Source: a virus. Taken from it: a stretch of DNA of 64,000 nt. Of the stretch, positions 29,639-34,149 are shown piece by piece. The notes beneath the pieces are model-generated. The model was not told where the DNA came from and searched no databases. It worked only from the letters and a program-made list of their open reading frames with translations. The stretch spans positions 1-64,000 of IMG/VR virus record IMGVR_UViG_3300028423_000904; one strand, given 5' to 3'. A program made the translations under genes and the position numbers. Each line of letters starts with the position of its first letter. Within the stretch, counting starts at the first letter, position 1.

Positions 29639-29666
29639 GGCTAGTCAGAAAATTTAACTAAGTAAG

Positions 29667-29691
29667 GGGGCAGGACATAATGTTCTGCCCC
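29667..29691 (+). terminator. Terminator hairpin after the sheath gene
   Basis: GGGGCAGGACA and TGTTCTGCCCC form an 11-bp stem (one G-T pair) with a TAA loop, followed by a pyrimidine-rich TCTCACTC. The tube and sheath are abundant products, and a stop or attenuator here would set sheath apart from the membrane cassette. Confidence 0.65.
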
Positions 29692-29711
29692 TCTCACTCA
29701 AAGGATAAAAA

Positions 29712-30164
29712 ATGAACATGAGATTCTGGAAGTTCTGGACTGTTTTCGTTCTGGTGATTTTTTCACTAGTTACAGGACAGATTTATTTTGGTTTGTTTGA
29801 CCATATACTCGCGTATGACCAAACATATATTACATTCGTTAATATCGGTATATTGATACTTGCTCATTTAATGATGTTACGATTGCATTGGAAGAAAAAA
29901 TACGCAGAACAACATCATAGAATGTTGCATTACCTAGCAGACACTGTGATTGTTTTGGGTCTTATCGGAACCCTGATTGGATTTATTATCATTCTTTGGT
30001 CTGTATTTGGACCAGGTGTTGTAATTGATCCGACAAATGTATCGTTAATGACAGACATGATTTCTCAAGTTGCACAGGGTATGGGTGCAGCATTGATTAC
30101 GTCGCTTTCAGGTCTTATTAGTTCAGCTATTATTAGCCTTCAATTGGTATTTTTAGAAGAATGA
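29712..30164 (+). CDS. MotA/TolQ/ExbB-like membrane protein
   Basis: 150 aa with four predicted membrane segments (about 8-29, 39-60, 76-100, 116-147). The third carries VLGLIGTLIGFI (81-92) and the fourth QGMGAALITSLSGLISSAI (122-140), matching the channel-lining motifs of the MotA/TolQ/ExbB proton-channel family. These proteins form pentamers that use the proton motive force to move a partner; the partner candidate is the next gene, which overlaps by ATGA. It lacks the large cytoplasmic insert of ExbB/TolQ. The SD AAAGGAT is 8 nt from the first ATG. Family assignment is by motif; the role in a phage is unknown. Confidence 0.7.
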   Translation: MNMRFWKFWTVFVLVIFSLVTGQIYFGLFDHILAYDQTYITFVNIGILILAHLMMLRLHWKKKYAEQHHRMLHYLADTVIVLGLIGTLIGFIIILWSVFGPGVVIDPTNVSLMTDMISQVAQGMGAALITSLSGLISSAIISLQLVFLEE

Positions 30165-30757
30165 GAAATGTAGCATCACTATTTGCGTTCATTGATATGC
30201 TCTTTAATTTCTTATTGGGGTTCACCTCATTGTTGATTCTCTCTTTTTTGATAATCAACCCGCCTGGCGACGTAGGAAAGATTGATCCCCCAGTAAAATT
30301 AATGGCCACAATTGAATGGGACGATGAAAGTTTGGCTGATATAGATATATGGGTCAGAGGTTATGATGAAGAATGGGTTGGCTTTACAAATAAGGACGGT
30401 TCTTATGTTTCACTTGAACGTGATGACCGTGGACAACGCACTGACATTATAACTGTCAATGGTGAAGACCAAATAATCATGCGAAATTTTGAAATTATGA
30501 ATTTTACTGAATTACCAGCAGGAGAGTATTTTTTCAATATACATCACTACAGTAATGGTGGTGATCTAGAGAGCCCAGATGTTGAAGTGAAAGTAACAGT
30601 TACCAATATGGATCCACACGAGCTTATATTCCAAGACACAACGGTGTTGTCATTAAAAGAAGAAAAAACAGTTCTCTCATTTGTTGTTGATCATGAAGGT
30701 AAAATATCCGATATCCGGACCGATGTTAGACTGCCACATAAAGAAATTGGAAATTAA
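30161..30757 (+). CDS. ExbD/TolR/MotB-like protein with extracytoplasmic beta domain
   Basis: 198 aa. A single N-terminal membrane segment, LFAFIDMLFNFLLGFTSLLI and following (7-32), carries Asp12 in the place of the proton-carrying Asp of ExbD/TolR/MotB (compare PFIDVMLVLLIIFM). The remainder is predicted outside the membrane and is not the usual ExbD or OmpA-type domain: it reads TIEWDDESLADIDIWVRGYD (about 50-69), LPAGEYFFNIHHYSNGG and VEVKVTVTN, resembling beta-sandwich domains with a DxDLxV motif (DUF2135/YfaP-like). I infer a stator partner for the preceding protein with an unusual effector domain. Confidence 0.62.
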   Translation: MRNVASLFAFIDMLFNFLLGFTSLLILSFLIINPPGDVGKIDPPVKLMATIEWDDESLADIDIWVRGYDEEWVGFTNKDGSYVSLERDDRGQRTDIITVNGEDQIIMRNFEIMNFTELPAGEYFFNIHHYSNGGDLESPDVEVKVTVTNMDPHELIFQDTTVLSLKEEKTVLSFVVDHEGKISDIRTDVRLPHKEIGN

Positions 30758-30759
30758 TT

Positions 30760-31203
30760 ATGAATTTAATACTTTCTCTGGTCGTTTTATTTGCAATTAC
30801 GATAGCATTTTTGACATACCGTTCAGATTCTCATTGGTCATTGAAATCTGTTGTCCTTCCAATTTTTTTGATTATAGCGTTATTAGGATATGAACATTAT
30901 GTAGATCATTTAGGAAAGCCACTCCTTGAAAAGCCAAAGGGAGATTATGAATATCATCACCATGTTGTAACATCTGAGTCAAATATTATTGCTTGGGTAA
31001 GAAATCGCGACGGTGAGCATCGTTTATATAAATTTCCTTACAATCGAGAAGATGCCAAAAAACTCGAGAAAGCCAAGCAAGAGACAAAACGAACGGGCAA
31101 GCCCGTTCGTTTGAAATTCAAAATGGGTGAAATAAGTCGAGTGAAAGACTCTGAAGAATGGGATATGCTTCCAAACAACCCAGTCAAACAGCCTGAAAAT
31201 TAA
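30760..31203 (+). CDS. Third membrane protein of the ExbB/ExbD-like cassette
   Basis: 147 aa with two N-terminal membrane helices (about 2-20 and 30-47), then a soluble charged tail (about 50-147) containing YEYHHHVVTSESNIIAWVRN and a Lys-rich helix. It starts 2 bases after the ExbD-like gene, so it likely belongs to the same unit. No family recognised. Its 3' part contains a strong inverted repeat (31087-31112) that looks like a terminator for the opposite strand. Its last four bases overlap the convergent small membrane gene. Confidence 0.65.
   Translation: MNLILSLVVLFAITIAFLTYRSDSHWSLKSVVLPIFLIIALLGYEHYVDHLGKPLLEKPKGDYEYHHHVVTSESNIIAWVRNRDGEHRLYKFPYNREDAKKLEKAKQETKRTGKPVRLKFKMGEISRVKDSEEWDMLPNNPVKQPEN
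31087..31112 (-). terminator. Inverted repeat inside a plus-strand gene, likely terminator for the minus-strand gene
   Basis: AAACGAACGGGC (31087-31098) and GCCCGTTCGTTT (31101-31112) are perfect 12-bp complements. Read on the minus strand the stem is followed by TGTCTCTTG, about 90 nt past the stop of the small membrane gene. It is embedded in the C-terminal coding region of the convergent gene and may also act on plus-strand RNA. Confidence 0.5.
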
Positions 31204-31379
31204 GCAGCAGAGTTCTGCACATCGGCCATCATAACCGGCGCCAGCCAGGGCGCAACCGTAATAAGTGCACATACCAGAACAGTGCTAGCCACCATACTGG
31301 GAACCAAAAGAGTCTCGCCGTTATTGATAATCATCAAGCCAGCCGGCGAGATATTGACTTCAGTATCTTTGATCTTCAT
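31200..31379 (-). CDS. Small single-pass membrane protein, early
   Basis: 59 aa from the ATG at 31379, which follows the SD GGAG by 6 nt; an in-frame ATG at 31391 has no SD. A short beta-like N-terminus (KIKDTEVNISPAGLMIINNG) precedes one membrane helix, VPSMVASTVLVCALITVAP. It has its own near-consensus host promoter on the minus strand, so it is expressed early and against the late transcripts of the membrane cassette. Function unknown; an inner-membrane exclusion or regulatory peptide is possible. Confidence 0.65.
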   Translation of the reverse strand: MKIKDTEVNISPAGLMIINNGETLLVPSMVASTVLVCALITVAPWLAPVMMADVQNSAA

Positions 31380-31408
31380 GTTCATCTCCATGCTTGTGTT
31401 GTATTTAC

Positions 31409-31437
31409 AATATAAGGTAAGCTGTCTTGGTTGTCAA
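31409..31437 (-). promoter_or_regulatory. Early sigma70-type promoter on the minus strand
   Basis: On the minus strand: TTGACA (31437-31432), 17-bp spacer, TATATT (31414-31409). The RNA would lead into CATGGAG and the ATG at 31379. It lies back to back with the plus-strand late box at 31439. Confidence 0.82.
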
Positions 31438-33298: not shown

Positions 33299-33775
33299 AT
33301 GTCGAGTTATCAGCAAGGAAATTATCAACCCAAGAATACTGAAAAATATCTTGGGAAGCATGTGCCCAAATATCGTTCAGGTTGGGAATTGCAATTTATG
33401 CGTATGTGCGACAATCATCCAAATGTTTTGGGATGGGCTAGCGAAAGCCATCGAATTCCATATATCAATCCTGTTACAGGAAAGCGCTCAACATATGTTC
33501 CGGATTTTTTTGTGATTTACGTTGATAAAGAAGGCAAGCGACATGCAGAAATGGTAGAAGTCAAACCCAGTAGTCATGTGGTTGGAAATGCAAAAGGTCA
33601 ATATGACAAGGCTATGGCAGTTGTTAATGAAGCAAAATGGAAATATGCGAGACAGTGGTGCCAGCAGCAGGGAATTGGATTTCGTATTATAACTGAAAAC
33701 GAAATATTTAACAAGCCACAAAAACCAAAAGCACGCCGTGGCCCAAGAAAAGTGGCTAAGAGGAAAAAAAGATGA
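33299..33775 (+). CDS. 4: Head completion protein gp4 (nuclease-like)
   Basis: 158 aa, closely following T4 gp4: QQGNYQPKNTEKYLGK (compare PQGKFIPKNPSKYVGD), then YRSGWELQFMRMCDNHPNVL, then AS...HRIPYINPVTGKRSTYVPDF and HAEMVEVKP. The PDF...D and E-VK residues (D77-region and EVK at about 88-90) are the PD-(D/E)xK nuclease signature. gp4 finishes the filled head before tail joining, probably trimming DNA. The C-terminus is strongly basic. It overlaps the next gene by ATGA. Confidence 0.93.
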   Translation: MSSYQQGNYQPKNTEKYLGKHVPKYRSGWELQFMRMCDNHPNVLGWASESHRIPYINPVTGKRSTYVPDFFVIYVDKEGKRHAEMVEVKPSSHVVGNAKGQYDKAMAVVNEAKWKYARQWCQQQGIGFRIITENEIFNKPQKPKARRGPRKVAKRKKR

Positions 33776-34149
33776 AAATACTAACATTTCTCTCGATGAT
33801 AACATTAGCAATGTTAGCAAGTAAACCAATCTTAGGGGCTGAGCGTGAAAGCTACTATTCAGGTTTGATTTGCGAACAAGAATATAATGGTTACGAACAA
33901 TCATTGCCTAGCGGCCTTCGCCCAGACTGTCAGACTCCATTCGTAATCATGGAATTTGATTGGGCTACACGATCAAAATCTTATCAGTGTATTGGGCAGT
34001 CATTAATTTATGCACAAGAATCCGGTCTGATTCCTGTTTGTATTTTACTCGCTAGAGATGATCAAGAACTTGAATTTGGTAACAGTTTGGATTTTTCAGA
34101 GTTTGGTATCATATTACACGTGATAGATACCAGACCATATGACCCATAA
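33772..34149 (+). CDS. Exported small protein with PD-(D/E)xK-like core
   Basis: 125 aa. An N-terminal signal peptide (MKILTFLSMITLAMLASKPI, cleavage probably after LGA at about 23) precedes a compact domain. RPDCQTPFVIMEFDWA (about 52-67) followed by SYQCIGQSLIYAQESG recalls a family of secreted endonuclease-like proteins with the pattern R-DC-T...(I)E-DFA-KW-EAIGQSL-Y. The Asp, Glu and the following helix fit a PD-(D/E)xK layout, but catalytic competence is uncertain. Export to the periplasm would place it at the cell surface late in infection. It overlaps gp4 by ATGA. Confidence 0.6.
   Translation: MKILTFLSMITLAMLASKPILGAERESYYSGLICEQEYNGYEQSLPSGLRPDCQTPFVIMEFDWATRSKSYQCIGQSLIYAQESGLIPVCILLARDDQELEFGNSLDFSEFGIILHVIDTRPYDP

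What the first reader, a model, noticed from the sequence alone, without database searches (positions are those of the whole stretch)
29712..31203. Phage-encoded ExbB/ExbD-like (MotA/TolQ-type) membrane cassette between sheath and tube genes
Seen: a four-helix protein with VLGLIGTLIGFI and GMGAALITSLSGL, then an ATGA-coupled protein with one helix carrying Asp12 in the ExbD/TolR position, then a third membrane protein 2 bases later. Known: MotA/TolQ/ExbB pentamers with MotB/TolR/ExbD dimers are proton-driven motors; the Zorya defence system uses such a pair. Inference: the phage makes a small proton-driven machine during late infection, with an effector domain that is neither OmpA-like nor ExbD-like. 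Possible roles are envelope disruption for lysis, blocking of superinfection, or energising DNA entry or release. I know of no described phage system of this form.
Basis: partly seen in the sequence, partly recalled or inferred. Interest (0 to 1): 0.88.

Follow-up and report, generated by a model that had tools for sequence, protein, structure and literature searches.

The report
Phage-carried three-gene proton motor module
Many viruses of one large group of bacteria carry a conserved three-gene set whose core resembles the proton-driven motors bacteria use to pull on their outer shell, often next to cell-bursting genes or a secreted protease; the same set also exists in ordinary bacteria, and I found no earlier description of it.

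Summary
Observation confirmed. Gene A (29712-30164) passes Pfam's MotA/TolQ/ExbB cut-off. Gene B (30161-30757) is one helix carrying Asp12 plus a periplasmic beta-sandwich unlike ExbD or OmpA. Gene C (30760-31203) has two helices and a small outer domain.

The trio is not peculiar to this phage. A-B-C recurs in order across about 240 partly redundant loci: rhizobial phages, environmental viral contigs and bacterial chromosomes (63 of 385 sampled Alphaproteobacteria carry B). Asp12 is kept in 72 of 73 aligned B proteins. The B tree needs at least three moves between cells and phages. Twelve other contigs share the sheath-trio position; elsewhere it differs.

In 16-3-like phages the trio follows endolysin, spanin and secreted-protease genes; in two large contigs endolysin-Rz-Rz1; in marine phages it often lies between a secreted ClpP-like protease and a SbmA/BacA transporter.

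Best reading: a trans-envelope, proton-driven machine of the 5:2 motor kind with a new force-bearing domain and third subunit, used by phages on the host envelope with a periplasmic protease, probably to weaken it before lysis. Motor action and role are inferred; no complex was modelled, and no paper describing it was found.

The parts
29712..30164 (+). gene A: MotA/TolQ/ExbB-family channel subunit, 150 aa, four predicted TM helices, cytoplasmic loop only about 19 aa
   Evidence: Pfam PF01618 26.8 bits > 22.9; profile of 56 relatives hits TolQ, ExbB, MotA, PomA and ZorA structures; G83, G86 and G134 invariant in 56/56
30161..30757 (+). gene B: single-TM axle-like subunit with a periplasmic beta-sandwich, 198 aa, ATGA-coupled to A
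   Evidence: AlphaFold2 model pLDDT 91.2: helix 2-32 then about ten strands; homologues in every trio locus
30194..30196 (+). codon of Asp12 in B's helix, at the ExbD/TolR/MotB proton-carrying position
   Evidence: D in 71/73 aligned rows; in one further row (L133) it is displaced by the alignment; one row (L108) has Ala
30338..30493 (+). acidic motif block of B (D60, D62, R87-D88-D89-G91, E111), invariant; perhaps a Ca2+ site
   Evidence: invariant in 73/73; the Ca2+ idea rests on weak likeness to 2LGE, to a subtilisin beta domain and to DUF2135
30760..31203 (+). gene C: third subunit, two N-terminal TM helices and a small periplasmic alpha/beta domain
   Evidence: present directly after B in 133 of the first 140 loci; model pLDDT 84.6; no convincing solved-structure match
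29666..29692 (+). 12-bp hairpin between sheath stop and gene A (no T run), possible processing or termination element
   Evidence: fold z-score -3.7 for 29640-29725
29700..29705 (+). AAAGGA ribosome-binding-site-like sequence before gene A
   Evidence: sequence

Best explanation
SHOWN by computation: A, B and C are a conserved three-gene unit shared by phages and bacteria, mainly of Alphaproteobacteria. A belongs to the MotA/TolQ/ExbB channel superfamily. B is a one-helix partner with a near-invariant Asp near the start of its helix and a periplasmic beta-sandwich. C is a third membrane protein with a small periplasmic domain. INFERRED from the superfamily: five A subunits surround a dimer of B helices; protons passing the Asp turn or shift the dimer, and its beta-sandwiches, probably with C, transmit force or movement through the periplasm to an outer-envelope partner (in one cellular clade perhaps the lipoprotein encoded directly after C). 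INFERRED for phages: unrelated phages took up the unit several times and use it late in infection, with a phage-encoded periplasmic protease, to loosen or strip outer-envelope proteins while the membrane is still energised, so that endolysin and spanins can finish lysis quickly.
For: Family of A. Asp of B. Fold of B. Order A-B-C: A in 138 and C directly downstream in 133 of 140 loci; 16 of 20 further genome regions with B hold all three; 80 further viral loci all hold at least two of the three in order and 71 hold A-B-C. Several transfers between cells and phages: at least 3 forced, 5 minimal. Envelope partner in cells: lipoprotein gene directly after C in seven loci of one clade. Lysis and protease neighbours: 16-3 has endolysin, Rz-like spanin, trypsin-like protease, A, B, C; a trypsin-like protease upstream at 35 of 57 phage loci; endolysin or Rz relatives upstream at 23 loci; endolysin, 3TM holin and lipoprotein protease before A in L106; endolysin, Rz, Rz1, A, B, C in L229/L230; a different, ClpP-like secreted protease just before A in 42 of 62 loci of another lineage.
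Against: No complex was modelled. Holins collapse the proton gradient, so a proton motor could only act before triggering. In Pootjesviridae the trio lies among replication and transcription genes, and in the window's clade inside the tail module, not beside lysis genes. The window's 91.5-kb record has no trypsin-like protease, though it may be a fragment. Trypsin_2 domains also occur in rhizobial phages without B. Cells keep the trio without lysis genes, so its basic activity is not lysis.
Confidence: 0.45

Rival explanations
1. Superinfection exclusion or receptor stripping: the motor and periplasmic protease remodel outer-membrane proteins so that no second phage can adsorb or inject.
For: Many carriers are temperate-type phages; in 16-3 the cluster lies just after immX; TonB/Tol-type motors are known entry routes for some phages (established knowledge; PMC10424213). 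A protease plus an envelope motor fits receptor removal.
Against: Neighbours are lysis genes rather than repressor-linked cargo; also found in large, probably lytic phages, where exclusion matters less.
Confidence: 0.2
2. Envelope maintenance: the phage brings its own Tol-like device to keep the outer membrane intact while host synthesis stops, delaying premature lysis.
For: Bacteria keep the same trio as a stand-alone operon with no conserved neighbour family; Pootjesviridae place it with replication and transcription genes.
Against: Does not explain the repeated pairing with secreted proteases and lysis genes.
Confidence: 0.15
3. Harvest of envelope protein: a periplasmic protease digests host proteins, the motor helps pull them loose, and a SbmA/BacA importer brings peptides in to feed phage synthesis.
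For: The marine cassette is secreted ClpP-like protease - A - B - C - SbmA/BacA, often followed by a second ClpP-like gene.
Against: Only one lineage has the importer (33 of 53 loci with enough sequence); other phages have only the protease or neither.
Confidence: 0.1
4. Decoy or inhibitor of host 5:2 motors (Zorya, Tol, Ton): phage A/B poison the host complexes.
For: A resembles ZorA weakly and keeps the channel core.
Against: B's own periplasmic domain and C are conserved throughout, and bacteria keep the intact trio as well; a decoy would not need them.
Confidence: 0.05
5. A passive membrane assembly with no proton-driven motion.
For: The loop between helices 2 and 3 of phage A is reduced to 12-52 residues against 40-60 in cells; no biochemical data.
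Against: Asp12, the Gly-rich motifs and the hydroxyl positions of the channel are conserved across great distances.
Confidence: 0.05

Closest known systems
TolQ-TolR / ExbB-ExbD (Tol-Pal and Ton energisers)
   Same: A's profile hits TolQ (E 3e-5) and ExbB (7e-4), with GLIGT and T-x-x-G aligned to TolQ's channel motifs; B has a single helix with Asp near its start.
   Different: A has four predicted helices and a tiny cytoplasmic loop; B's periplasmic domain is a beta-sandwich with no match to ExbD; C shows no relation to TolA/TonB at the sensitivity used; genomes with the trio have at least three other MotA_ExbB genes.
MotA-MotB / PomA-PomB (flagellar stator)
   Same: Four-helix topology; the PomA match spans almost the whole profile.
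   Different: No OmpA-like peptidoglycan-binding domain in B; no torque-generating cytoplasmic domain in A.
Zorya ZorA-ZorB (anti-phage defence)
   Same: Weak ZorA hits confined to the channel core (E 1e-4; 8qyh).
   Different: No long ZorA tail, B not matched by any PADLOC model, no cytosolic Zor partners seen; carried by phages.
Phage lysis clusters with spanins (16-3-type)
   Same: The trio stands just after endolysin, spanin and secreted protease genes in several phages.
   Different: Known spanins act without ion-driven motors (established knowledge); no described lysis cassette with a MotA/ExbB-type channel was found.

Membership tests
MotA/TolQ/ExbB proton channel family (PF01618) | profile score above the curated cut-off | tested here: met
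   26.8 bits vs 22.9 for the window's A; 53/56 relatives match at E <= 0.01
MotA/TolQ/ExbB proton channel family (PF01618) | channel-lining motifs of the last two helices | tested here: met
   GLIGT...G and T/S-x-x-G aligned to TolQ GLFGTVWG and ATAIG; window has Ser131 where 53/56 have Thr
MotA/TolQ/ExbB proton channel family (PF01618) | pentamer around two one-helix partners | not testable with these tools
   no multimer prediction available
ExbD/TolR | helix Asp near its start | tested here: met
   72 of 73
ExbD/TolR | ExbD-type periplasmic domain | tested here: not met
   no Pfam match to ExbD; no ExbD/TolR chain in sequence or fold searches
MotB/ZorB | OmpA-like peptidoglycan-binding domain | tested here: not met
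   no OmpA match
Zorya system | ZorA with long cytoplasmic tail, ZorB and cytosolic effectors | tested here: not met
   A is 150 aa; B and C match no PADLOC model
Tol-Pal system | TolA, TolB and Pal with TolQR | tested here: not met
   C matches no solved TolA; the neighbours scanned in the window match no Tol genes
Phage lysis cassette | gene located with endolysin, holin or spanin | tested here: inconclusive
   met in 16-3-like phages and L229/L230, not met in the window and Pootjesviridae

The most novel reading that the evidence does not exclude
Phages of Alphaproteobacteria encode an undescribed proton-driven trans-envelope motor that works with a phage-encoded periplasmic protease to dismantle the host's outer envelope before lysis; in marine phages a peptide importer is added. 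Bacteria use the same motor for a still unknown task of their own.
Probability: 0.35. Interest if true: 0.92.

Novelty: new variant of a known kind. Interest (0 to 1): 0.78.

Why it matters
Proton-driven 5:2 motors are known from flagella, Ton/Tol, gliding and the Zorya defence. A version carried by hundreds of phage contigs, with a new force-bearing domain and a new third subunit, would be, as far as I could find, the first such motor described on the virus side. Its pairing with two unrelated kinds of secreted protease makes a concrete, testable claim about how phages of Alphaproteobacteria deal with the outer envelope. The cellular copies mark an uncharacterised envelope machine in a large bacterial class, open to direct knock-out tests in Azospirillum or Tistrella, and phage 16-3 offers a genetic system.

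Tried and rejected
Fold matches for B and C in solved structures: none convincing (no E <= 0.001). Whole-family alignment A1 as scan query: too divergent. Common neighbour family around cellular trios: none. Exclusive link of trypsin-like protease and trio: rejected, since phiM9, Phosso and Atu_ph07 have such a domain without B. Promoter-like sites around the trio: no more than expected by chance. Trio in the window's sheath relatives Phosso and Atu_ph07: absent; other small genes occupy the gap after the sheath there. Relatives of the small minus-strand ORF after C: none found. PHROG matches for A, B and C of 16-3 and P10VF: none.

Full report
WHAT IS THERE. The window is bases 1-64000 of a 91,539-base virus record, a myovirus whose sheath resembles those of PA5oct, CBB, Phosso and Atu_ph07. 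Gene A, 150 aa, passes the Pfam cut-off for MotA/TolQ/ExbB. Gene B overlaps it by ATGA and has one helix with Asp12 and a large outer domain. Gene C starts two bases after B and has two helices. From charges, both ends of C should face the periplasm (inference).

THE TRIO IS REAL AND CONSERVED. B finds 27 Rhizobium and Sinorhizobium phage records, and the neighbours of fitting size in seven of them proved to be A and C. A megaplasmid of Azospirillum has the same order with the same ATGA overlap, among metabolic and housekeeping genes. Scans of bacterial genomes and IMG/VR gave 80 and 49 loci. With models built from these alignments, A stands upstream in 138 and C directly downstream in 133 of 140 loci; the two loci without A begin at a contig end, and a small group (L097, L098, L100, L101) has no C downstream. 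These loci include near-duplicates. Of 385 sampled Alphaproteobacteria, 63 have B; 16 of 20 extracted regions have all three genes, including several genomes of about 1.4 Mb. A scan with the window's own clade returned 184 viral matches. Of the 80 loci then examined (78 new, two), 71 have A-B-C; 11 have the sheath before the trio, ten of them with the tube after it. With L002 this makes twelve contigs with the window's arrangement, some near-duplicates; L172 and L138 are the same contig.

WHAT THE PROTEINS ARE. 53 of 56 A proteins match MotA_ExbB. A profile of A finds TolQ, ExbB, MotA, PomA and ZorA among solved structures, aligning GLIGT with TolQ GLFGT and T-L-x-G with TolQ T-A-I-G. G83, G86 and G134 never vary; the window has Ser131 where 53 have Thr. 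The loop between helices 2 and 3 is 12-52 residues in phages and 40-60 in cells (19 in the window), so phage versions are very small. In B, Asp12 is kept in 72 of 73 after correcting one misaligned row. B's model is confident (pLDDT 91.2): one helix, then about ten strands. It matches no ExbD or OmpA domain. Weak likenesses point to calcium-binding beta-sandwiches: 2LGE, a subtilisin beta domain, DUF2135; with the invariant D60, D62, D88, D89 and E111 this suggests a metal site (inference). C has a moderately confident model and no convincing solved relative.

HISTORY. A tree of B needs five changes between phage and cell, three of them forced by well supported branches (a quick tree with several long branches). 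The window clade (window, L002, L138, L139) stands apart from the 16-3-like phages and the Pootjesviridae. Phages therefore seem to have exchanged the unit with cells more than once. The trio is absent from two sheath relatives tested.

NEIGHBOURS. In cells no neighbour family recurs, but one clade has a lipoprotein gene directly after C (seven loci), which suggests an outer-membrane partner. Five genomes with the trio each have three or more other MotA_ExbB genes, so it is not their Tol or Ton system. In phages the picture differs. At 35 of 57 loci a secreted trypsin-like protease stands upstream, in several cases with a lipoprotein-type signal (by eye). In 16-3 the order is endolysin, Rz-like spanin, protease, A, B, C; in L106 it is endolysin, 3TM holin, a small membrane protein, lipoprotein protease, A, B, C. 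Endolysin or Rz relatives were found upstream at 23 loci. RHph_TM3_3_14B repeats the pattern with lysozyme, endopeptidase and an SGNH hydrolase. L229 and L230, from another lineage, have endolysin, an acyl-carrier-like protein, Rz, overlapping Rz1, then A-B-C (these genes named by eye). In a large marine group a different secreted protease, ClpP-like with a C-x-S-A-C motif in all 47 copies, stands near the start of A in 42 of 62 loci, and a SbmA/BacA transporter after C in 33 of 53. Of ten phages without an adjacent trypsin-like protease (L138 left aside), five have one elsewhere in the genome, but so do phages without the trio.

HOW IT MOST LIKELY WORKS. Shown: a conserved channel subunit, a conserved Asp-bearing helix partner and a conserved third subunit. 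Inferred: a 5:2 proton-driven motor whose B domains and C act in the periplasm on an outer-envelope target. For phages, repeated pairing with two unrelated secreted protease types and with lysis genes argues for work on the host envelope. I favour weakening before lysis (about 0.45 overall; nearer 0.85 for the three-gene motor-type unit itself). A motor driven by the membrane gradient would have to act before the holin opens. Superinfection exclusion, maintenance and peptide harvest remain open.

STATUS. No paper in the searched library describes a phage-encoded MotA/ExbB-type unit; a 2025 survey of this superfamily (PMC12505986) mentions phages only for Zorya defence, and the paper on AP-16-3 (PMC10460002) does not discuss these genes under the terms searched. 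The library lacks most subscription journals and preprints, so earlier notice cannot be excluded. Filed as a new variant of a known kind: the engine is of a known type; the outer domain, the third subunit and the viral setting are new.

Noticed in passing
window 31200-31391 (-), 31409-31437, 31087-31112: A 63-aa minus-strand ORF with a C-terminal hydrophobic helix converges on gene C; it has an 11-of-12 sigma-70-like promoter upstream and a strong hairpin with a T-rich tail inside C's coding region as possible terminator. No relatives found.
   Followed up: partly
L201, L205, L219 and others: Marine phage contigs carry a SbmA/BacA-family transporter directly after gene C; INPHARED phages show only four hits, which look like bacterial DNA.
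   Followed up: partly
L148-L154, directly after C: A lipoprotein family (YFPL..G..W.Y) follows the cellular trio in one clade and is itself present in further copies in L149 and L150.
   Followed up: partly
L229:5351-5569, L230:5323-5535: An acyl-carrier-protein-like gene sits between endolysin and Rz/Rz1 in two large phage contigs, just before the trio.
   Followed up: no
L143:4991-6251: Two B genes in tandem without A or C in a bacterial genome that has a complete trio elsewhere.
   Followed up: no
L108:5424-5996: A B protein lacking the helix Asp (Ala instead) although A and C are present.
   Followed up: no
L143, L144, L147, L155: Some cellular trios lie near genes that look by eye like PQQ-type dehydrogenase or beta-propeller genes.
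   Followed up: no
L094:4932-5297: A 122-aa protein with a CCxEHD motif, reminiscent of phospholipase A2, directly before the trio in a 360-kb phage contig; no Pfam match.
   Followed up: partly
L032: A contig filed as a Gemmatimonadaceae MAG has an endolysin-like gene near the trio and may be phage DNA.
   Followed up: no
window 33772-34149: A small protein with a signal peptide just after the head-closure gene; no family match.
   Followed up: no
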